A stretch of DNA of 34,688 nt from a virus: positions 1-34,688 of the IMG/VR virus record IMGVR_UViG_3300021197_000315. One strand, given 5' to 3'. Positions 3,851-26,291 of this stretch are shown in pieces. Within the stretch, counting starts at the first letter, position 1. Every line of letters starts with the position of its first letter. The notes beneath the pieces were generated by a model. That model made no database searches. It was given only the letters and a program-made list of their open reading frames with translations, and was not told where the DNA came from. The translations under genes and the position numbers were made by a program.

Positions 3851-4318
3851 TTACTCCACATGCGCCCATCTTAGGCGACTTCTGATTTTTGATATTCCGT
3901 GTTTTGACATGTTATATTTTCGCATCAGTGGCGCTAAGTCTGGCGGCGCTGATCTGATATATCTAACGTCATCTTCTGTTAGGTTTGTCTTTCCGTTTCG
4001 TTCTCCGATGTTGTTTGTCCCGTGACGCTTTTTGTCGTGCATGTTTTCTTTGTGAGTTTTCCACTTGAGGTGATTTGGATTTACACATGCTGGATTTCCG
4101 CATTTGTGTGCAGCATGTTTCTTCTGTCCCACTGGTTCACCATGAGCCAAAATGCACATCCATCTAGATGCTGTTTTTTGCTTTCCATTTATTACTGCCA
4201 GCCCATAACCTGTGTTGTTTGTTCTGTATGGCCAAATCAAACATTCATCAGATTGCAGACCGACATTACAACGCAAGAATTTTTCACTTGAACCTTTTGG
4301 TGCTATTTTCTTACCCAT
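3851..4318 (-). CDS. HNH homing-type endonuclease
   Basis: A 155-residue protein. ATG 4318 is preferred because AGGAG lies seven bases upstream, within the frame that would otherwise start at 4336. The middle has the HNH_3 core: ASRWMCILAHGEPVG, then AAHKCGNPACVNPNHLKW, then KENMHDKKRHGT. The C-terminal part (LTEDDVRYIRS ... YNMSKHGISKIRSRLRW) is a helix-turn-helix that would choose the target site. It is more A+T-rich than its operon neighbours. It is probably a selfish homing gene inserted between ninB and the GapR-like gene, keeping the overlapping-gene organisation. Confidence 0.88.
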   Translation of the reverse strand: MGKKIAPKGSSEKFLRCNVGLQSDECLIWPYRTNNTGYGLAVINGKQKTASRWMCILAHGEPVGQKKHAAHKCGNPACVNPNHLKWKTHKENMHDKKRHGTNNIGERNGKTNLTEDDVRYIRSAPPDLAPLMRKYNMSKHGISKIRSRLRWAHVE

Positions 4319-4769
4319 CGCAGAACTCCTGTTCATATTTAAGAGCCTCTGGGTCAGTCAATCTAACGCCTTGAACTGACCAATAAAGCTGCATCTGTTC
4401 CATAAATTCCGTCATTTGCATGACGTTCATCAGTCGAGTTACTGGAAGATCAAATGCCTTTATCGCTTCAAGTTTTTGTTCGTAAGGCAAATGCTTCAGA
4501 ACCCGATCGTAGGACAGCTTAAACGCTTCATTCTGCGCGCGCAAGATTGGAACTCCAAAACGCAATTTGCATTCTGCGCGCACATCTTCATGTGTTTGAT
4601 CTCCAAGCTGAACTGCAATGTCTGTGAACCACCTTTGTGCCAGCCTATTTTGCGCCTTAGATCGCGGTGCGCCTTGCGTCCATGTCACAGTAATTGGCAA
4701 CTTTCGATCACGCAGCATGTTAGCAAGTGCATCAACATGCTGCGGTTCTCTGATTATCTTGGTCGGCAT
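4311..4769 (-). CDS. ninB: NinB-like recombination protein
   Basis: A 152-residue protein from ATG 4769 (TGATG overlap with the upstream stop). It contains RSKAQNRLAQRWFTDIAVQL near residue 36, the THEDVRAECKLRFG block and MTEFMEQMQLYW near the C-terminus, the order seen in lambda NinB (Orf family). NinB-type proteins bind single-stranded DNA and help load recombinases in place of RecFOR. It acts with the ERF and exonuclease encoded just upstream in the same operon. Assignment is by remembered family pattern. Confidence 0.85.
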   Translation of the reverse strand: MPTKIIREPQHVDALANMLRDRKLPITVTWTQGAPRSKAQNRLAQRWFTDIAVQLGDQTHEDVRAECKLRFGVPILRAQNEAFKLSYDRVLKHLPYEQKLEAIKAFDLPVTRLMNVMQMTEFMEQMQLYWSVQGVRLTDPEALKYEQEFCDG

Positions 4770-4949: not shown

Positions 4950-5564
4950 TTATCCCCCAAACTTGTCGCGCAGCTTTTGCAGCTTGTCTTCGAGTTCAAG
5001 CAAAAACAGGCGCACTTCGGTTTCGATTTCTTTCTGGCGTTCTTCATCAGCCCATACGCGCTGCATCCAGAAGTTCATGTCACCAGGTAGGCGCGGATCG
5101 AAGCTGACGAAATCGCACCATTCGCGCTGACAGCACATCATCTGCACCTGCATCTGCGTGACGTATTTCGCCGGCACCTTTTCGGATAGCAGCGTGTCGA
5201 TGTGCGTGGCGCTATTCGGACACTTGATCTCAACCAGCCCGTCAGCGCCCACAAGCCCGTCAGGAGACGCACCAAAGCCTGTTATGGTAGGGTGGGTTAC
5301 AAAACCGTCTTCAAGCACGTCTTCGCCCGTCATAAGCTCGTATGCGGCCCGTGCCTGCGGCTCTGTCTCTGTTCCCCACTGCATTGCTGCTGATGAAAAC
5401 CCGTCAGCCTTTTCTTGCGTCAGGCGCTCAGTGATAAGCTGGGCCATGTAGTTCGCACGGCTGGCGCTGTATCCGCTCTTGGTCTTGGCCATAACATCGG
5501 CGGTGCGGGATGCTGTTACACATCCCAACCGTGCCGAAAACCATTCGTCACTGCGCTGTTCCAT
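4950..5564 (-). CDS. YqaJ/lambda-type 5'-3' exonuclease
   Basis: A 204-residue protein with a strong GGAGG site six bases upstream of ATG 5564. It has the RecB-like PD-(D/E)XK fold signatures: QRSDEWFSARLGCVTAS at 3-19, the GTETEP motif at 64-69, Asp102 in GASPDG and Glu112-x-Lys114 in VEIKCP. The ten-residue Asp-to-Glu spacing equals that of lambda exonuclease (D119/E129/K131). It should resect double-stranded ends to give 3' single strands for the annealing protein, whose gene overlaps its start by 17 bases. Confidence 0.93.
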   Translation of the reverse strand: MEQRSDEWFSARLGCVTASRTADVMAKTKSGYSASRANYMAQLITERLTQEKADGFSSAAMQWGTETEPQARAAYELMTGEDVLEDGFVTHPTITGFGASPDGLVGADGLVEIKCPNSATHIDTLLSEKVPAKYVTQMQVQMMCCQREWCDFVSFDPRLPGDMNFWMQRVWADEERQKEIETEVRLFLLELEDKLQKLRDKFGG

Positions 5565-6144
5565 TGTCTTCCTCCTTCGGTGCCTGTGCTTTCTTCTTCT
5601 TCAGCATGGCGATTGCGTCTGCTGCTTGCTTGGCGTTCATCTGGTTGAGTTCATCAACCTTCCAATATGCGCAGAACTTCACTTCGTCTGTTTCGGTGTC
5701 AAAGATCAGATCGTTCATCTCTTGGAACTGTTCAGCGCTGATCGGCTTGGGTGGCTCTTGCTTTGGCGCAGCCTTTGCAGCGGCGTTTCCATCGTCATCT
5801 TCAGGTGCAATGCCGGCCATTGCCATGAGACCATAGCGGCGCGCATATGTAACCGCAGAGCCATAGCCTTGCATGTCGTTCTTGCTGACGATCAGTGGCA
5901 CGCGGCAAGAAAGCTGTTCGCCGCTTTCACCGTGGATCAGGATCGTTTCCACAAAGCGGCCCTGTTCGTCTTCGCCAGTGGGCTGGATGACTGCAATGCC
6001 GTGTTCGTTAAGTGCAGGCAGGCACGCATCCATGACGCTACCCAGATCCGCATATTTGCTGCGGAAGTGTGGGTTGTTGGATTGCTTGAGCGCTTTGCCC
6101 ATGTTGATCTGCGCTGCTGCGAGTGATGTTGCGATGCTTTTCAT
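5548..6144 (-). CDS. erf: ERF family single-strand annealing protein
   Basis: A 198-residue protein, close to P22 Erf (about 204). It has the ERF hallmarks NNPHFRSKYADLGSVMDAC at 23-41, EHGIAV, and YGSAVTYARRYGLMAMAGI followed by EDDDGNAA. A Pro/Ala-rich linker then leads to a second C-terminal helical part, as in other Erf proteins. It anneals complementary single strands and works with the exonuclease downstream. The site AGGA lies eight bases before ATG 6144. Recombination of this type can circularise terminally redundant phage genomes. Confidence 0.93.
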   Translation of the reverse strand: MKSIATSLAAAQINMGKALKQSNNPHFRSKYADLGSVMDACLPALNEHGIAVIQPTGEDEQGRFVETILIHGESGEQLSCRVPLIVSKNDMQGYGSAVTYARRYGLMAMAGIAPEDDDGNAAAKAAPKQEPPKPISAEQFQEMNDLIFDTETDEVKFCAYWKVDELNQMNAKQAADAIAMLKKKKAQAPKEEDNGTAQ

Positions 6145-11026: not shown

Positions 11027-11289
11027 GATACCGCAAGAAGCCTGTTGTGATTGAGGCAATGCAATACACGGCACACGAACCCGATGCTGTAACTGCATTT
11101 TTGGGTGGTGCGTGTTGGTGCAATGAAATCGGCCCAATTATATCAACACTGGAGGGCGACATGCAGATTTCTGATGGAGACTGGATTATCAAAGGCGTTA
11201 ACGGCGAGTTCTACCCGTGCAAGCCAGACATCTTTGAAAAGACATATGAGCTAGTGGAGGAAGTAGAAGGACAAGGCGATGATCTGTAA
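11023..11289 (+). CDS. Widespread conserved phage protein, unknown function
   Basis: An 88-residue protein with GGGGAG seven bases before ATG 11023. It shows the common phage pattern YRKKPVVIEAMQY ... STLEGDMQISDGDWIIKGVN, then GEFYPCKPDIFEKTYE. This family occurs in many unrelated tailed phages, but I know of no established activity. It is compact and beta-rich with a Cys pair (CWCN). Confidence 0.82.
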   Translation: MRYRKKPVVIEAMQYTAHEPDAVTAFLGGACWCNEIGPIISTLEGDMQISDGDWIIKGVNGEFYPCKPDIFEKTYELVEEVEGQGDDL

Positions 11290-11725
11290 CGGACGTAAGC
11301 TATACGACACCCGCCCACTGTCACCCATGTCAGCAATGAAGCTGCGCGAACACGGCGTCTCTTGGGGTATGTCAGAAGCAGGATATGATCTGCGCATCAA
11401 GCAATCGGTTCTGCTGCATCCGTTCAAGCGCTTTGCAATAGCCAGCACAGTCGAGCGCTTCGACATGCCGCGCGATCTGGTGGCTATCGTCCATGACAAA
11501 TCCACATGGGCGCGCAAAGGTCTATCTGTCTTCAACACAGTGATTGAACCTGGCTGGCGTGGCTGGCTGACGCTTGAATTGGTCTATCACGGGTGGAAAC
11601 CGCTTCGCATCCCAGCAGGCGCAGGCATCGCACAGGCTATCTTTCACCGCATAGAAGAACCCGCATCATACGGGAACGGAAAGTATCAAGATCAAGAAGA
11701 TCGACCGATTGAAGCGCGTAATTGA
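11279..11725 (+). CDS. dcd: dCTP deaminase-like nucleotide enzyme
   Basis: A 148-residue protein overlapping the previous gene by 11 bases. It shows the Dcd/dUTPase fold signatures: SEAGYDLRI at 32-40, KSTWARKGL at 74-82 (the S-x-x-A-R-x-G-L motif), EPGWRGWLTLEL at 90-101 with Glu100 at the catalytic position of Dcd, and GNGKYQDQ near the C-terminus. It would convert dCTP to dUTP (or hydrolyse both), feeding thymidylate synthesis. Shorter than E. coli Dcd (193). Confidence 0.85.
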   Translation: MICNGRKLYDTRPLSPMSAMKLREHGVSWGMSEAGYDLRIKQSVLLHPFKRFAIASTVERFDMPRDLVAIVHDKSTWARKGLSVFNTVIEPGWRGWLTLELVYHGWKPLRIPAGAGIAQAIFHRIEEPASYGNGKYQDQEDRPIEARN

Positions 11726-11731: not shown

Positions 11732-11794
11732 GCCAACATTGCTTTATATTGCAGCCATGCGACCAGTCCGCTTGGCTGAGATATGAGGTGTAAA

Positions 11795-12193
11795 ATGGCA
11801 GCGAAGAAGAAAGTTGGAAGGCCCAGCAGTTATGACCCAAAGATGGTCAAACAAGCACGGGAATACATTAAGAAGCACTTAGAGCATGATGATCCAATCC
11901 CCACAGTGGCAGGATTGGCGTCAGTCATAGGGACCACCAGAAAGACGATTTATGATTGGGTGAAGCACCCTGAAAACGCAGAATTTAGTGACATCTTAGA
12001 GGAATTGCTGCAAAAACAAGAGCGAGTTCTAATTCGGAATGGCTTGCTGAACGCCTTCAATGCGCCAATCACCAAGATGATGCTGACCAAGCACGGATAT
12101 TCTGATAAGATTGAAAACGAAGTATCTGGACCTGGTGGTGGGCCGATTGTTCAGAAGATTGAGCGCACGATTGTAGATCCAAAGGAAGCATAA
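11795..12193 (+). CDS. Terminase small subunit
   Basis: A 132-residue protein from ATG 11795 (GAGGTG five to seven bases upstream), not the upstream codon at 11783. It begins AAKKKVGRPSSYDPKMVKQA and has a helix-turn-helix VAGLASVIGTTRKTIYDWVK at 39-58, then an oligomerisation helix and MMLTKHGYSDKIENEVSGPG. This is the usual plan of phage small terminases that bind the packaging initiation site. Its stop overlaps the next start (TAATG). The expected pac site may lie in or near this gene. Confidence 0.85.
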   Translation: MAAKKKVGRPSSYDPKMVKQAREYIKKHLEHDDPIPTVAGLASVIGTTRKTIYDWVKHPENAEFSDILEELLQKQERVLIRNGLLNAFNAPITKMMLTKHGYSDKIENEVSGPGGGPIVQKIERTIVDPKEA

Positions 12194-14283
12194 TGGACAG
12201 ACTGGCTGAATTAGCAGAATACGATCGATCAATACCAGGTCTGATCGATGATGATTTTCTCGCTGCTGGTTTCACGCCAGACGAAATTGCCAAATATCGC
12301 GGCACGTTCCAGCCATCCAGCCGCATTCCAAGAACAGCTTCAAGGCTGACGCCTGAAGACATCGCGCAGGCAGAGCAAACATACGGCACACTTCAGGCGC
12401 CAGATTACACCATGCGCGAAACGTCCACGCAGCGCGTTCAAGATGCACTGATTAACCAGCTTGGCCTAGATCCATATCTCGCTGGACGATACGCGCGCGA
12501 CATCATGGGCGACACAAGCCCGACATCTCAGAACATCCTTGATGGTCTTGGCTTGGCAGATCTCACGCCTCTGGGCGCAGTGTTTGGCGTCGAGGAAGGC
12601 GGAGGAACCGCTGTCGAGGGCTATCAAGAGGGTGATTATCTCAAGATGGGCTTGGGTGCGGCAGAGGCCGGTCTTGGCGTTGCAGAGGCTTTCCCACTGA
12701 CGCGACCGATTGCTGAAGGCGCAGGCGTTCTCGCCCGTGAGGTTTACAGCAGCCCCTATATGGCTGACGCTATCGGCACGCTGCGTGGCATCCGTGACTT
12801 TGATGCTGACTTCCTGCTTGGCCGTGGTGATCCAGCAATGGCACAAGGCGTTGGTGCTGATGTTGTTGGCGATCGATCGTTTGATGTAACGCGCAAAGAT
12901 GCTTCAGGCATTTTCGGTCAAGGGACTGAGCGTGTGCGCTATACTGATCCAGCAAGCGGCGGCACAATGGAAGTTGTTGTGCGACCCGATGGCAGTGCAT
13001 CTGTTCTGGAACTTGAGGTGCCAGAAGAGTTCCGTGGTCAGGGCATTGGTCAAAGCCTACAGGATAAAGTTATGCAGGACTTCCCAATGATGGGTGGTCA
13101 GGTGTCATCGAAGGCTGCTGCAACAACTGCTTATCGTCTTGGTCGCAGGCCACCAAATAATCCAGATGCTACACTCGAAGATGTTTTTGCTGAGATTGAC
13201 GAAATGTCTTCCGTGAACATGATCTCGCCAGAGATGCAGGCGCGAATGGAACCAAAGCAGGTTGAGGCTCCGACAGATGAAAGACGTGGCATCATCGCGT
13301 TTCATGGGTCTGGTGCAGACTTTGACAGGTTTGAACTGAGTAAGATCGGCACTGGAGAGCAAGCGCAGGTATTCGGTCGCGGTCTTTACTTTACAGACAG
13401 TGAAGACATTGCTGAGTTTTATCGCCAATCAGTTCGCGGTCGCCAAGACTTATCGCGTGGTTATGAAGTCTCATACAAAGGCAACAAGGTTTCTGATCTT
13501 GGAGATACGCCTTCAGCAGAAGTGCAGCCGTATGAAAGCGCTGCTATCAATAAGATTGCGGACAACATAAGCAAAGTCACCACAATGGCCACAAAGGACT
13601 TGCCGCAAGGCGAACTGGTCCAACTGGCTAAAGACAAGGCAATCAAGACGCTTGAAGGTGAGATCAAGAGAACCGCAGAAAGAACATCAGGCAGCATGTT
13701 TGATGAACTTACTGACCTGATTGGAAACAGCTTGGATGATGAACTGAAGGCGCTTCAGGCAATTGATCCAAACGATGTTAGCTTTGCAGAAGGCAAGAAG
13801 TATCAGGTTCGCCTAGATGTTTCCCCAGAGGAACTGCTGAATTGGGACATGCCTTTTGATAAGCAGACGCCAGCAGCCCAGCGCGCCATTCTGAAGACTG
13901 CTGATGAAATCACTTTGGACGATGCAGTGAACTTGGGTGTCGATGTTTTCGATGCGCCATACAACGGAGATGAAGCAGCGGCGCTTGATGCGGCCAAGAA
14001 GATACTTCTTGATGACTTTTCCGTGAACCGCTTCTTGAACACTTGGTCTGACATCCGTGGATCTGATGGCGCTGGTGAAGAGTTGCTTGCTAAGAACGGA
14101 TTGAAGGGCATCACATACAAAGCGGATCAAGGTCCGACAGCAAGAGACCCGTCTGCTGGCGGTCCAAGCAATTACGTCATTTTCGACGATAAGCTGATTA
14201 ACATCATGAAGAAGTATGGCATTGTTGGTCCTGTTGCTGTCACAGGGATTGCCGCACAAGAAGAAACGTCTAACGAAATATGA
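12193..14283 (+). CDS. Polyvalent protein with GNAT-like and ART-like domains
   Basis: A 696-residue protein between the two terminase genes, overlapping both (TAATG at the start, ATGA at the end). Residues 100-190 are Gly/Ala-rich and amphipathic, as in ejected proteins. Residues about 245-320 look like a GNAT acetyltransferase, with strand LELEVPEEF and acetyl-CoA loop RGQGIG (281-286). Residues about 366-670 look like an ADP-ribosyltransferase of the polyvalent-protein type: AFHGS (His371), GRGLYFTDS (Tyr399) and a C-terminal NYVIFDD (660-666). Such proteins are thought to be packaged and injected with DNA to modify host targets. The domain names are from motif recognition; activity is not shown. 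Confidence 0.72.
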   Translation: MDRLAELAEYDRSIPGLIDDDFLAAGFTPDEIAKYRGTFQPSSRIPRTASRLTPEDIAQAEQTYGTLQAPDYTMRETSTQRVQDALINQLGLDPYLAGRYARDIMGDTSPTSQNILDGLGLADLTPLGAVFGVEEGGGTAVEGYQEGDYLKMGLGAAEAGLGVAEAFPLTRPIAEGAGVLAREVYSSPYMADAIGTLRGIRDFDADFLLGRGDPAMAQGVGADVVGDRSFDVTRKDASGIFGQGTERVRYTDPASGGTMEVVVRPDGSASVLELEVPEEFRGQGIGQSLQDKVMQDFPMMGGQVSSKAAATTAYRLGRRPPNNPDATLEDVFAEIDEMSSVNMISPEMQARMEPKQVEAPTDERRGIIAFHGSGADFDRFELSKIGTGEQAQVFGRGLYFTDSEDIAEFYRQSVRGRQDLSRGYEVSYKGNKVSDLGDTPSAEVQPYESAAINKIADNISKVTTMATKDLPQGELVQLAKDKAIKTLEGEIKRTAERTSGSMFDELTDLIGNSLDDELKALQAIDPNDVSFAEGKKYQVRLDVSPEELLNWDMPFDKQTPAAQRAILKTADEITLDDAVNLGVDVFDAPYNGDEAAALDAAKKILLDDFSVNRFLNTWSDIRGSDGAGEELLAKNGLKGITYKADQGPTARDPSAGGPSNYVIFDDKLINIMKKYGIVGPVAVTGIAAQEETSNEI

Positions 14284-15506
14284 ACCTCCAGATCAAAACA
14301 CCGCGCTGGGCGCTCCCGATACTGAGTGACCCAGATGCACGCTACCTTGGCGCGCATGGCGGTCGTGGCTCTGGCAAGTCTCACATGTTTGCGGAGATGC
14401 TGATCGAGCGCAGCATCATGGAGCGTGTGGACGCTGTGTGCGTTCGTGAGGTGCAGAAGTCTCTGGATCAGTCGGTCAAGAAGCTGCTGGAAAACAAGAT
14501 CGAAGAACTTGGCGTTGCGCACATGTTCGCGATCAAAGAATTCCAGATTAGATCCGTTCATGGCGGCATCATAATCTTCCAAGGCTTGCAGAACCACACA
14601 GCAGACAGCATCAAGTCGCTTGAAGGTTATGACATTGCCTGGGTTGAGGAAGCGCAGAGCCTGAGCCAGTTCTCGCTGGACATCTTGCGCCCGACCATTC
14701 GTAAACCAGGTTCGCAGCTATGGTTCACATGGAACCCGCGTTACGACACCGATCCGATCGAGGGATTGCTGCGTGGTCCAGACATTCCAGAGAAAAGCAA
14801 GGTTGTTGAGGTAAACTTCGAAGACAACCCGTGGTTCCCTGACGTTCTGCGCGAAGAAATGGAATACGACAAGCGCCGAGATCCAGACAAATACATGCAC
14901 GTCTGGAAGGGCGAGTATGTTCGCAACAGCGAAACGCGGGTGTTTAAAAACTGGACGGTTGAAGACTTTGAGACACCACCGGACGCGATCCACCGGCTTG
15001 GCGCTGACTGGGGCTTTGCGACAGACCCGACAGTTGCTATTCGTAGCCACATCGTTGGCCGCAAGCTGTATATTGATTATGAGGCTTATCAGGTGGGCTG
15101 TGAGATTGTTGACACCCCATCGCTGATTATGTCCATCCCAGAGGCTGAGAAATGGCCTATGGTGGCTGACAGCGCGCGCCCTGAGACCATCAGCCATATG
15201 CGCAAGAACGGTTTCCCGAAGATCCAACCGGCAATCAAGGGGCCGAAGTCTGTCGAGGAAGGCGTCGAATGGCTCAAGTCGTTTGACATCATCGTTCACC
15301 CGCGCTGCAAACACACGATTGATGAACTGACGCTTTACAGCTACAAGACAGACAGGGACACTGGTGCTGTTCTTCCCGTCTTGGAAGACAAAGACAATCA
15401 CGTTATTGACGCTCTGCGATACGCCTGCGAAGGTTCTCGAAGGGCCAATGGTCAGAAGAAGGCAAAGGCCAAGCCAATAGCGAATGTTATGCCTATTGCA
15501 CGGTGA
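14280..15506 (+). CDS. Terminase large subunit
   Basis: A 408-residue protein. ATPase motifs: Walker A GGRGSGKS at 27-34, Walker B with catalytic Glu at DIAWVEEA (118-125), and coupling motif FTWNPR. The RNase H-like nuclease acids are Asp243 (GADWG), Asp297 (VADSA) and Asp377 (HVIDALRY). It belongs with the PBSX/Terminase_3 type, not the P22 gp2 type, although the head genes are P22-like. It translocates and cuts DNA at the portal. Confidence 0.96.
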   Translation: MNLQIKTPRWALPILSDPDARYLGAHGGRGSGKSHMFAEMLIERSIMERVDAVCVREVQKSLDQSVKKLLENKIEELGVAHMFAIKEFQIRSVHGGIIIFQGLQNHTADSIKSLEGYDIAWVEEAQSLSQFSLDILRPTIRKPGSQLWFTWNPRYDTDPIEGLLRGPDIPEKSKVVEVNFEDNPWFPDVLREEMEYDKRRDPDKYMHVWKGEYVRNSETRVFKNWTVEDFETPPDAIHRLGADWGFATDPTVAIRSHIVGRKLYIDYEAYQVGCEIVDTPSLIMSIPEAEKWPMVADSARPETISHMRKNGFPKIQPAIKGPKSVEEGVEWLKSFDIIVHPRCKHTIDELTLYSYKTDRDTGAVLPVLEDKDNHVIDALRYACEGSRRANGQKKAKAKPIANVMPIAR

Positions 15507-15535: not shown

Positions 15536-15564
15536 GCAGGCAAATTTTATTGCGAGGCTATGTC

Positions 15565-17637
15565 GTGGCAAGAATGACCAAAAAAGAACGTCTGGCAAAT
15601 GTCCACGAAGAAGCGCTTCTGGAGTTTGACAGCATCCAAGGATCAATGCGCGAAGAGCGTTTGCAGTGCCTTGAGGATCGTCGCTTTTACTCCATTGCTG
15701 GTGCGCAGTGGGAAGGCAACCTTGCAGAACAGTTCAACAACAAGCCGCGCTTTGAGGTCAACAAGATCCATCTGAGCGTCATGCGGATCATCAACGAATA
15801 CCGCAACAACCGCATCACTGTTGATTTTGTCAGCAAGGATGGCGACGAAGACGATAAGCTGGCCGATACTTGCGATGCTTTGTTCCGTGCAGACGAAGAA
15901 GACAGCGCCGCAGATGAAGCGTATGACAACGCGTTTGAGGAAGCTGTTGGTGGTGGCTTTGGTGCGTTCCGCCTGCGCTCTGTTTACGAAGACGAATACG
16001 ACGAAGACAACGACAATCAGCGCATCCGCATAGAGCCGATCTATGACGCTGACAGCACCGTGTTCTTCGATATGGACGCCAAGCGCCAAGACAAGTCGGA
16101 TGCACGCCTGTGCTACGTTCTGACAGCCATGACGCGCGATGCTTACATTTCTGAGTATGACGATGACCCAGCTTCGTGGCCGAAAGAGATCCACCAATAT
16201 GAATTTGATTGGGCAACGCCTGACATGGTTTATGTTGCGGAGGTCTACCGCGTCGAAGAAGCCTCTGAACTGATCCGCATCTTCCAGACCATCGATGGTG
16301 AAGAAGAGCGCTACAGCGAGACCGACTTCGATCAGGATGAAAACCTTGAGGAAACACTTGAGGCCATTGGCACGATCGAGGTTCGCCAGAAGCGCGTTAA
16401 GCGCCGCAAGGTTCGCAAATACATCATGTCTGGATCTGGCATCTTGGATGATGCTGGCTACATCGCAGGCACGGAAATCCCGATCGTTCCTGTCTATGGC
16501 AAGCGCTGGTTCATTGATAACGTAGAGCGCTGCATGGGCCACGTTCGCATGGCCAAGGATGCACAGCGCCTGAAGAACATGCAGCTTTCCAAGCTGGGCG
16601 AAATCTCTGCGCTTTCCACAGTAGAAAAGCCAATGTTCACACCAGAGCAAGTTGCTGGCTTTGAAATGATGTGGGCAGAAGACAACCTGAAGAACTATCC
16701 ATATCTTCTGCTGAACACAGTGACTGACGCCAATGGGCAAGAAGTCATGGCTGGTCCGATTGGTTACACCAAGCCGCCACAAGTTCCGCCTGCGCTGGCT
16801 GGTCTGTTGCAAATTACAGAGCAAGACATCTCTGATCTTCTGGGCAACCAAGAGGCCGGCGAAGAGATCACCAGCAACATTTCCGGCAAAGCTGTTGAGT
16901 TGATCCAAAACCGCTTGGACATGCAGTCGTTCATCTACATGAGCAACATGGCCAAGGCGATCAAGCGCGCTGGTGAAATCTGGCTGTCTATGTCCCGCGA
17001 AATCATGGTTGAGCCTGGTCGAAAGATGAAGGGCATGGGCTCACAGGGCGAACTGCACCGCATTGAACTTGGCAAGCCTGTTCTGAACCAAGAGACAGGC
17101 GAAGTCGAATATGAGAACGATTTAAGCCAAGCCAAGTTTGACGTTTCTGTTGAGGTTGGCCCGTCATCGTCTTCTAAGCGTGCCGCAACTGTTCGCTCGC
17201 TGATGGGCATGATGCAGTTGGCAACTGACCCAGAGACGCAGCAGGTTCTTGGCTCTATGGCCATGATGAACATGGAGGGCGAGGGCATTGGTGAGGTGCG
17301 TGGATACTTCCGCAAGAAGCTGATCCGCATGGGCGTTGTTGAGCCAACAGATCAAGAGAACGAAGAACTGATGGCGGAACTTCAGCAGCTTCAAAGCCAG
17401 CCAGATCCGCAGTCTATGTATCTTGAAGCGGAGGCTGCGAAGTCTCAGGCTCAGGCACAGAAGGCAATGGCCGATACAGAATACACGGCGGCGCGAACAG
17501 AAGAGACGCGCGCCAAGACGATCGAGACGCTCGCAGGCATTGAGCAAAAAGAGCGCTCGAACGTAGTAGACACAGCCCAGAAGCTACAGAACGTAGTTAC
17601 TGGGCCAGGAATGCGTCAGCCACCCAGACGCACATAA
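15565..17637 (+). CDS. P22-type portal protein
   Basis: A 690-residue protein. GTG 15565 has GAGG seven bases upstream; an internal ATG at 15574 lacks a ribosome site. The N-terminus contains FYSIAGAQWEGNLAEQF and NKPRFEVNKIHLSVMRIINE, typical of P22 gp1-like portals, and the C-terminal part is a long Gln/Ala-rich helical barrel (QSQAQAQKAMADTEYTAAR). Size is close to P22 gp1 (725). It forms the dodecameric ring for DNA entry and tail attachment. Confidence 0.94.
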   Translation: MARMTKKERLANVHEEALLEFDSIQGSMREERLQCLEDRRFYSIAGAQWEGNLAEQFNNKPRFEVNKIHLSVMRIINEYRNNRITVDFVSKDGDEDDKLADTCDALFRADEEDSAADEAYDNAFEEAVGGGFGAFRLRSVYEDEYDEDNDNQRIRIEPIYDADSTVFFDMDAKRQDKSDARLCYVLTAMTRDAYISEYDDDPASWPKEIHQYEFDWATPDMVYVAEVYRVEEASELIRIFQTIDGEEERYSETDFDQDENLEETLEAIGTIEVRQKRVKRRKVRKYIMSGSGILDDAGYIAGTEIPIVPVYGKRWFIDNVERCMGHVRMAKDAQRLKNMQLSKLGEISALSTVEKPMFTPEQVAGFEMMWAEDNLKNYPYLLLNTVTDANGQEVMAGPIGYTKPPQVPPALAGLLQITEQDISDLLGNQEAGEEITSNISGKAVELIQNRLDMQSFIYMSNMAKAIKRAGEIWLSMSREIMVEPGRKMKGMGSQGELHRIELGKPVLNQETGEVEYENDLSQAKFDVSVEVGPSSSSKRAATVRSLMGMMQLATDPETQQVLGSMAMMNMEGEGIGEVRGYFRKKLIRMGVVEPTDQENEELMAELQQLQSQPDPQSMYLEAEAAKSQAQAQKAMADTEYTAARTEETRAKTIETLAGIEQKERSNVVDTAQKLQNVVTGPGMRQPPRRT

Positions 17638-25042: not shown

Positions 25043-25608
25043 ATGATCTTGCCCTAAACACTGATTTCTGCGATAATTCAGGTGCTGAGATGATGGCCAA
25101 CCAGCAGGCGGTTTCCCAAGAGGATGGCCCATTGCACATAATCGAGAGAAATGAAGATTTTGCTCCAATCGACTTGGATCTTGTCGAGCAATATCTTTTG
25201 TCTCAAGATCAGGCTGAATGCCCTGTCCAGCATTACTTTGGCCCTGGCGTGTGCATTCGTGAGCTTTTTGTCCCTGCTGGTTCCTTGGTTCTGAGCCACA
25301 AGCACAAAGAGCAGACGATGAACATTCTGCTTAAAGGCAAAGCCGCAGTTGTCATCAACGATGAAGTTCGCGTCATCGAAGGTCCATATATTTTTGTCAG
25401 TGACCCTGGCAGGAAGCTTGGATATGCAATCGAAGATGTTGTATGGCAGAATGTTTTTGCAACTGACGAAACAGATCCAGAAAAAATTGAGGATATGTTC
25501 GTTGACAAGACAGATGCTTGGAAGCGCAAGCAAGAAGAGAAAAAGAATGAAGCTGCGATAAGCGATGCTGTTCGCAAACACCTTGGAGGGCTTGTCTCAT
25601 GTCAATGA
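25039..25608 (+). CDS. Cupin-fold phage protein
   Basis: A 189-residue protein with an ATGA overlap at 25039. The central part has a double-stranded beta-helix pattern: GVCIRELFVPAGSLVLSHKH, then KEQTMNILLKGKAAVVINDE and EGPYIFVSDPGRKLGYAIED. Metal-binding His candidates are His in SHKHKE. The C-terminus is charged (WKRKQEEKKNEAAISD). Cupin proteins at this position recur in phages but their substrate is not known to me. It may be enzymatic or structural. Confidence 0.75.
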   Translation: MNDLALNTDFCDNSGAEMMANQQAVSQEDGPLHIIERNEDFAPIDLDLVEQYLLSQDQAECPVQHYFGPGVCIRELFVPAGSLVLSHKHKEQTMNILLKGKAAVVINDEVRVIEGPYIFVSDPGRKLGYAIEDVVWQNVFATDETDPEKIEDMFVDKTDAWKRKQEEKKNEAAISDAVRKHLGGLVSCQ

Positions 25609-26291
25609 TGGCCACAGCAGTAATCGGATCTGCCGTTGTAGGCGGTGTTGTCCAGAACAAAGCATCTAAAAGGGCTGCGGCGGCACAGACGCAAGCTGCG
25701 GATATGGGTATTGCGGAGCAGCGCCGCCAGTTTGATCGGGTTCAAGAACTTCTTTCTCCATACGTTGAAGCTGGTGATGCAAGTCTTATTCAGCAGTTGG
25801 CTTTGGGCGGTATGTCTGGTGTCGAGGCGCAGCGCGAAGCTATTTCTGGCATCGAGCAGGGCGCTGAATACCAGTCTCTTGTTGGTGCCGGTGAAGAGGC
25901 GATGCTGCAAAGCGCAGCAGCCACAGGTGGTTTGCGAGGTGGAAACACACAGGCGGCACTGGCTCAGTTCCGTCCACAGGTTCTGTCCAGCCTAATTAAC
26001 CAACAATATTCACGGCTTGGCGGCATTACGAGCCTTGGTCAGCAATCTGCCGCTGGTGTTGGAACCGCTGGAATGCAAACAGGTCAAAACATTGCAAACC
26101 TTTATGGGCAACAAGGTGCTGCTGCGGCTGGATCTGCACTGGCTTCAGGTCAGGCGTTTGGAAATGTCATCGGCAGCATTGGTCAATACGCTGGTGGCGT
26201 TGCTTCTGGCGCATTCCCTAATCCGTTTGGTGGCGGAGGTTCATCCTTGGCACCAACGACATCTCTTAGACCGCAAATGAGGCCGTTCTAA
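25599..26291 (+). CDS. Ejection protein, P22 gp7-like
   Basis: A 230-residue protein, the size of P22 gp7 (229). It contains FDRVQELLSPYVEAGDASL, then AAATGGLRGGNTQAALAQFR and a Gly/Ala-rich tail (AGGVASGAFPNPFGGGGSSL). It begins with a short hydrophobic segment (AVIGSAVVGGVV). These proteins leave the virion and build the channel for DNA across the envelope. It is followed in order by gp20- and gp16-like genes. Confidence 0.87.
   Translation: MSMMATAVIGSAVVGGVVQNKASKRAAAAQTQAADMGIAEQRRQFDRVQELLSPYVEAGDASLIQQLALGGMSGVEAQREAISGIEQGAEYQSLVGAGEEAMLQSAAATGGLRGGNTQAALAQFRPQVLSSLINQQYSRLGGITSLGQQSAAGVGTAGMQTGQNIANLYGQQGAAAAGSALASGQAFGNVIGSIGQYAGGVASGAFPNPFGGGGSSLAPTTSLRPQMRPF

What the first reader, a model, noticed from the sequence alone, without database searches (positions are those of the whole stretch)
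12193..14283. GNAT plus ADP-ribosyltransferase polyvalent protein between the two terminase genes
A 696-residue protein carries an acetyl-CoA loop RGQGIG at 281-286 and an ART-like set (FHGS His371, GLYFTDS Tyr399, NYVIFDD 660-666). A Gly/Ala-rich amphipathic region precedes them. It is coupled to both terminase genes, an odd place for such a protein. Polyvalent ART proteins are known in phages; the combination with GNAT in this position is, to my knowledge, not described. It could be packaged and injected to modify host RNA polymerase, translation or DNA-binding proteins, or inactivate a defence system. All activity is inference.
Basis: partly seen in the sequence, partly recalled or inferred. 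Interest (0 to 1): 0.78.

Follow-up and report, generated by a model that had tools for sequence, protein, structure and literature searches.

The report
Swappable effector gene between phage terminases
A P22-like aquatic virus of bacteria carries, wedged between its two DNA-packaging genes, a large protein with an acetyltransferase module and an ADP-ribosyltransferase-like module; this slot turns out to be a place where related viruses keep the front of the protein and swap the rest, which looks like an exchangeable arsenal probably shipped into the host with the viral DNA.

Summary
The 696-aa ORF is real, sits at the stated coordinates, and overlaps both terminase genes. The GNAT module (aa 228-355) is confirmed by a high-confidence model whose best PDB matches are GNATs. 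The ART module (aa 356-691) is a homologue of Pfam ART-PolyVal by profile-profile comparison; its fold could not be modelled. His371, Tyr399 and Asn660 are invariant in a 15-member ART set, but a sister lineage has His replaced by Gln.

The claim that GNAT+ART is undescribed is wrong: Iyer et al. 2017 report ART next to GNAT in phage polyvalent proteins, and ARTs near terminase genes are also published.

What is new is the slot. Among 38 distinct complete proteins between TerS and TerL in related viral contigs, pairs with TerL at least 97% identical keep the N-terminal 120 aa (mean 69% matched) but not the C-terminal 200 aa (22%); 85 ordered pairs show N kept/C replaced against 1 the other way. 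On the TerL tree N-terminal families change 5 times, C-terminal families 21 times. The slot is empty in 16 contigs.

Best reading: a polyvalent effector with a lineage-specific N-terminal module and exchangeable cargo, probably packaged and ejected. Virion location and enzyme activity are inferred. New variant of a known kind.

The parts
11783..12193 (+). TerS, small terminase subunit (P22 gp3-like)
   Evidence: PF16677 GP3_package E=5.9e-20
12193..14283 (+). X: 696-aa modular polyvalent-type protein in the TerS-TerL slot
   Evidence: ORF and translation; relatives in IMG/VR
12193..12870 (+). N module, aa 1-226: lineage-specific constant region; found downstream of TerS / upstream of TerL wherever its full-length form has enough flank to tell
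   Evidence: 84-97% identical in L005, L008, L010, L011 whose remaining modules differ
12493..12747 (+). Gly/Ala-rich helical stretch, aa ~101-185; this part alone also recurs in other phages' GNAT/ART proteins (L015, L026, L116, L174)
   Evidence: low-confidence helices in the full-length model
12850..12871 (+). Linker (VGADVVGD) at a module junction; this 22-bp stretch matches twice in L008/L009, where a 211-aa segment is inserted here
12874..13257 (+). GNAT module, aa 228-355; RGQGIG acetyl-CoA loop at 13033-13050
   Evidence: AF2 pLDDT 94.4; Foldseek top PDB hits all GNATs; Acetyltransf_CG E=0.0026; 43-member family
13258..14265 (+). ART-like module, aa 356-691
   Evidence: PF18760 E=1.5e-5, below cut-off; hhalign to PF18760 members E=3.6e-7
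13303..13305 (+). His371, putative ART strand-1 residue
   Evidence: invariant in A9; Gln in the L005/L008/L014/L094/L097/L098 lineage
13387..13389 (+). Tyr399, putative ART strand-2 residue
   Evidence: invariant in A9
14170..14172 (+). Asn660, position of the third ART catalytic residue by alignment (E/Q/D/T in PF18760 members); Asp665 close by is not invariant
14280..15506 (+). TerL, large terminase subunit; 4-nt overlap with X
   Evidence: PF04466 E=1.9e-33; junction
15550..17637 (+). P22-like portal protein
   Evidence: PF16510 E=1.5e-157
25599..26291 (+). P22-like DNA ejection protein: the phage has an ejection apparatus
   Evidence: phrog_598 E=6e-40
4950..6144 (-). ERF-family recombinase and YqaJ exonuclease: a phage recombination system that could drive module exchange (inference)
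   Evidence: Pfam ERF E=1.8e-25, YqaJ E=1.7e-28

Best explanation
X is a polyvalent-type phage effector occupying an exchange slot between TerS and TerL. Shown: it has a lineage-bound N-terminal module, a GNAT module and an ART-family module; relatives keep the N module and replace the rest with other modules (other ARTs, tandem GNATs, a PBECR5 nuclease, LPD23, several families of unknown function); the slot can be empty. Inferred: X is made late with the packaging proteins, the N module docks it to a lineage-specific virion or packaging partner, it leaves the head with the DNA through the P22-type ejection conduit, and inside the new host the GNAT and ART modules acetylate and ADP-ribosylate host targets (candidates: RNA polymerase, translation factors, defence proteins) to help early take-over or blunt defence.
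For: GNAT fold and ART homology. Constant N / variable C: TerL>=97% pairs keep 0.69 of the N-terminal 120 aa but 0.22 of the C-terminal 200 aa; 85 versus 1 ordered pairs; N-family changes 5, C-family changes 21 on the TerL tree. The same C-terminal families occur with different N-terminal families. DNA breakpoints fall at module edges (w 12871, ~13239, 14280), with 91-97% nt identity resuming at the TerL start. Other slot occupants carry PBECR5 and LPD23, two domains from the polyvalent-protein set. Purifying selection on every module. Neighbours of the GNAT or ART proteins in other phages: TerL (L135, L160, L127), a portal-like head-tail adaptor (L178), an internal virion protein (L116). The phage has a P22-type ejection protein. 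Precedent for injected ARTs: T4 Alt, quoted in PMC5512222.
Against: No proteomics: virion location is inferred. The ART region could not be folded confidently (full-length pLDDT 52.7) and matches no PDB sequence. The third catalytic position is Asn, and a sister lineage has lost His, so some members may be inactive. The N module is specific to this slot, which also fits a role in the packaging complex rather than in delivery.
Confidence: 0.6

Rival explanations
1. X acts late inside the producing cell (for example it modifies host proteins or protects the packaging machinery from host immunity) and is not packaged. The N module tethers it to TerS, TerL or the portal.
For: Translational coupling to both terminase genes; the N module is tied to the slot and to TerL lineage. 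PMC9503650 raises immune protection of the packaging apparatus as an alternative for ARTs near terminase genes.
Against: Homologous modules also sit in other places near head and internal-virion genes of other phages, and 16 relatives do without X.
Confidence: 0.25
2. The variability is a by-product of small-terminase exchange: recombination selected on TerS drags the adjacent X along, without selection on X.
For: TerS itself is mosaic: 37-38% identical in relatives whose TerL is 94-98% identical; Hardies et al. 2023 propose TerS diversity selection as a driver of terminase mosaicism (PMC10386132).
Against: The X part next to TerS is the conserved part (84-97%) and the part next to TerL is the replaced one, the opposite of hitch-hiking with TerS; breakpoints lie inside X at module edges. 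dN/dS 0-0.2 in all modules.
Confidence: 0.08
3. The ART module is a catalytically dead binding domain and X works by binding or as a scaffold.
For: Asn at the third catalytic position throughout the family; His to Gln in a sister lineage.
Against: His371 and Tyr399 are invariant in the 15-member H-type ART set; some eukaryotic mono-ARTs work without the Glu (own knowledge).
Confidence: 0.15
4. The mosaic is an assembly artefact of metagenomic contigs.
For: All slot variants come from uncultivated contigs.
Against: The same architecture recurs in independent samples (L008/L009/L012; L010/L013; window/L004), reading frames and the 4-nt overlap with TerL are kept, and junctions sit at module edges.
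Confidence: 0.02

Closest known systems
Polyvalent proteins of phages with ART and GNAT domains (Iyer et al. 2017, PMC5512222; Pfam ART-PolyVal PF18760)
   Same: GNAT and ART in one polypeptide, phage head/packaging gene context, mosaic architectures, associated PBECR and LPD domains.
   Different: ART here scores just below the PF18760 cut-off and has Asn at the third catalytic position; fixed location between TerS and TerL; constant N module with exchange of the rest inside one phage lineage.
MuF polymorphic toxins of temperate phages (PMC5576092)
   Same: Conserved N-terminal part with variable C-terminal effectors, encoded in the DNA-packaging module.
   Different: No MuF domain found; located upstream of TerL rather than just downstream of portal; X usually overlaps TerL by 4 nt, leaving no downstream immunity ORF.
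T4 Alt
   Same: Head-packaged, injected ART acting on the host is the model for function.
   Different: Alt is of the R-S-E clade (PMC5512222); X has an H-Y type ART and a GNAT module; injection not shown for X.
phiGT1 gp5 (Sulfitobacter phage, QLB38217.1)
   Same: ART module about 28% identical, in the head gene cluster.
   Different: Lies downstream of portal, 387 aa, no GNAT module detected.

Membership tests
ART-PolyVal / Tox-ART-HYD2 clade | Score above the curated PF18760 cut-off (31.2 bits) | tested here: not met
   Window 26.2 bits; best relative L146 30.9 bits
ART-PolyVal / Tox-ART-HYD2 clade | Homology to PF18760 members | tested here: met
   hhalign prob 92.9, E=3.6e-7; shuffled, reversed and unrelated controls E>=0.17
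ART-PolyVal / Tox-ART-HYD2 clade | His in strand 1, Tyr in strand 2, Asp in strand 5 (PMC5512222) | tested here: inconclusive
   His371 and Tyr399 present; aligned third position is Asn660; nearby Asp665 is not invariant
ART-PolyVal / Tox-ART-HYD2 clade | ART fold | tested here: inconclusive
   Full-length model pLDDT 52.7, no ART hit
GNAT superfamily | GNAT fold with acetyl-CoA loop | tested here: met
   pLDDT 94.4; 25 PDB hits E<=0.001, all described as acyl/acetyltransferases; RGQGIG loop
GNAT superfamily | Acetyl-CoA dependent transfer | not testable with these tools
   needs biochemistry
Polyvalent proteins | At least two functionally different domains in one polypeptide of a mobile element | tested here: met
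   GNAT and ART modules
Polyvalent proteins | Encoded with virion/packaging genes of a portal-terminase phage | tested here: met
Polyvalent proteins | Packaged and injected | not testable with these tools
   needs virion proteomics
MuF polymorphic toxins | MuF domain at the N-terminus | tested here: not met
   no MuF match in Pfam at E up to 5
MuF polymorphic toxins | Small immunity ORF downstream of the toxin gene | tested here: not met
   X overlaps TerL by 4 nt in the window and most relatives

The most novel reading that the evidence does not exclude
The TerS-TerL slot is a dedicated effector-exchange locus of a large clade of uncultivated P22-like phages: a lineage-specific N module acts as a general loading and ejection signal, so any C-terminal cargo becomes an injected early effector, and the cargo families without confident known domains (c2 in L013/L059/L096, c3 in L050/L061/L078, c4 in L037/L055/L101) are new host-take-over or anti-defence activities.
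Probability: 0.45. Interest if true: 0.78.

Novelty: new variant of a known kind. Interest (0 to 1): 0.58.

Why it matters
If right, comparing one fixed position in this clade yields a catalogue of phage effectors under diversifying exchange, most without known domains, and a candidate N-terminal loading tag for P22-type virions. It makes testable how phages swap early weapons while keeping the delivery part, as polymorphic toxins do between bacteria.

Tried and rejected
Search of the phage collection with whole X: 3 records only, ART part only. GNAT module in named phages: nothing convincing (best E=5e-3), and no GNAT-module match in eight named phage records or prophage-bearing genomes (no positive control in that set). 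Full-length AlphaFold2: too poor to show the ART fold; its Foldseek result only returns weak GNAT hits. PDB sequence search with ART profiles: none useful. NCBIfam: no matches for ten slot or ART proteins. TerS hitch-hiking was considered and rejected because the variable part is the TerL-proximal one. An early hhalign with only three PF18760 members was inconclusive (prob 14) and was replaced by a six-member set; I chose the second set after seeing the first result, with shuffled controls added. Virion proteomics of phiGT1 exist (PMC10386132), but the table is in a supplement I could not open, so whether gp5 is in the virion stays unknown to me.

Full report
OBSERVATION. It starts on the last base of the TerS stop codon (TAATG) and its stop overlaps the TerL start by four bases (ATGA). 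Neighbours are GP3_package TerS, Terminase_3 TerL and a P22-type portal; scaffold, coat and a P22-type DNA ejection protein follow. The window is an IMG/VR virus record of 34,688 bases. No promoter or terminator excess is seen across the junctions.

GNAT MODULE (aa 228-355). Pfam sees Acetyltransf_CG below cut-off; a 43-sequence profile weakly matches PDB YjdJ (E=0.048). AlphaFold2 on that alignment gives pLDDT 94.4 and Foldseek against the PDB returns GNATs, including RimI (E 1.8e-5 to 1e-3, TM about 0.5). It is thus a compact GNAT. The module is remarkably conserved (59-93% to the window over 43 sequences), also where the rest of the protein is unrelated. In BFVD the nearest are two uncharacterised uncultured-phage proteins, 81% and 70% identical; in named phages there is no convincing match.

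ART MODULE (aa 356-691). ART-PolyVal is found at E=1.5e-5, below the cut-off, and at 5.6e-7 to 7e-3 in many relatives, always below the cut-off. Profile-profile comparison with six PF18760 domains, taken from genomes where the family rings over its cut-off, gives probability 92.9, E=3.6e-7, aligning His371 and the Tyr399 region; 30 column-shuffled controls, a reversed one and three unrelated alignments reach E=0.17 at best. In a 15-member alignment His371, Tyr399 and Asn660 are invariant. Asn660 takes the place of E/Q/D/T in PF18760 members (my alignment by eye around the last strand), so a H-Y-N active site is likely but unproven. A sister lineage (L005, L008, L009, L012, L014, L094, L097, L098) has Gln instead of His. 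The full-length model is poor (pLDDT 52.7), so the ART fold is not shown.

THE SLOT. A scan with the window's TerL gave 80 related loci. With redundant loci removed, 79 contigs had a scorable ORF next to TerL: 45 with a complete ORF of at least 300 aa between TerS and TerL, 13 cut by the contig end, 18 with only a short ORF, 3 other. Of the 18 short ones, L016 and L040 carry N-module remnants, leaving 16 empty; the short ORF matches GP3_package above the cut-off in three of the ten tested and below it in a fourth, and the rest are TerS-sized, some HTH-like, so their identity as TerS is partly inferred. Prophage and cultured relatives (Xanthomonas phage PBR31, Cupriavidus, Paraburkholderia and others) show no large ORF there.

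MODULE EXCHANGE. Against L008/L009 the window is 91% identical in DNA from TerL onward, 93-94% in the N module and 93.6% in GNAT, with almost no DNA match in the ART part and a 211-aa insertion at the linker; against L013 it is 96.5% from TerL onward and 89% in the N module, with nothing else of X in common; with L006, from another gene context, only the ART module matches, at 93%. For pairs of phages with TerL at least 97% identical, 110 of 133 pairs share less than half of X at 60% identity or more. Among 38 distinct complete X proteins the N-terminal 120 aa are matched to 0.69, the middle to 0.23 and the C-terminal 200 aa to 0.22; 85 ordered pairs keep N and change C, one does the reverse (pairs are not independent of each other). 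N-terminal families fall into three large groups that follow the TerL tree (5 changes), C-terminal families change 21 times, presence/absence 7 (quick tree, SH-aLRT support only). ART, c2, c3 and c4 C-terminal families each occur with at least two N-terminal families. Other occupants carry PBECR5 (E=6e-14), LPD23 (E=3.7e-23), tandem GNAT-like stretches and DUF7178-like stretches; many match nothing. All compared modules are under purifying selection.

INTERPRETATION. The pattern (fixed front, exchangeable rear, packaging-gene context) is that of polymorphic effectors such as MuF toxins (PMC5576092), but without a MuF domain and, in most cases, without room for an immunity gene. The domain set is that of polyvalent proteins (PMC5512222). 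Injection is inferred from context: an ejection apparatus in the window, ART homologues in giant proteins beside internal virion proteins, and an internal virion protein next to a GNAT protein (L116). ERF and YqaJ recombination genes in the window could promote exchange (inference).

NOVELTY. GNAT next to ART in one polyvalent protein is published, as are ARTs near terminase genes and strong mosaicism of a polyvalent protein in Helicobacter phages (PMC5512222). I found no description of an inter-terminase exchange slot with a constant N module; the paper library is incomplete, so this is absence of evidence. Filed as a new variant of a known kind.

Noticed in passing
window 11783-12193; L005, L008, L010, L013: TerS is only 37-38% identical in relatives whose TerL is 94-98% identical; conserved DNA resumes at about window 12114, inside the 3' end of TerS.
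   Followed up: partly
L016:1210-1778 and L040:5483-5686: Two relatives carry remnants of X: L016 has an internal deletion with a frame change, L040 a 67-aa ORF holding the first ~51 aa that still overlaps TerL.
   Followed up: partly
L116:4116-6242; L162:1455-5573: Beside the GNAT module another conserved stretch (YRMxH...VTIYRAVP...GDxVxxSxxYAxxHG) that looks like a second enzyme-like module.
   Followed up: no
L013, L059, L096, L091, L043, L041 (c2); L050, L061, L078 (c3): Large C-terminal cargo families without a confident Pfam or PHROG match, recurring with different N-terminal modules.
   Followed up: partly
L166:1752-9992; L176:3183-10121: Giant phage proteins (2746 and 2312 aa) carry the same GNAT module in their interior.
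   Followed up: no
L219:2599-3207: A contig binned to a Pirellulaceae MAG holds an N-module-like ORF (202 aa) and no intact X before TerL; probably a mis-binned phage fragment.
   Followed up: no
window 3851-4336 (-), 4950-6144 (-): HNH endonuclease, YqaJ exonuclease and ERF recombinase on the minus strand.
   Followed up: no
window 11279-11725 (+): dCTP deaminase/dUTPase-like gene just upstream of the terminase region.
   Followed up: no
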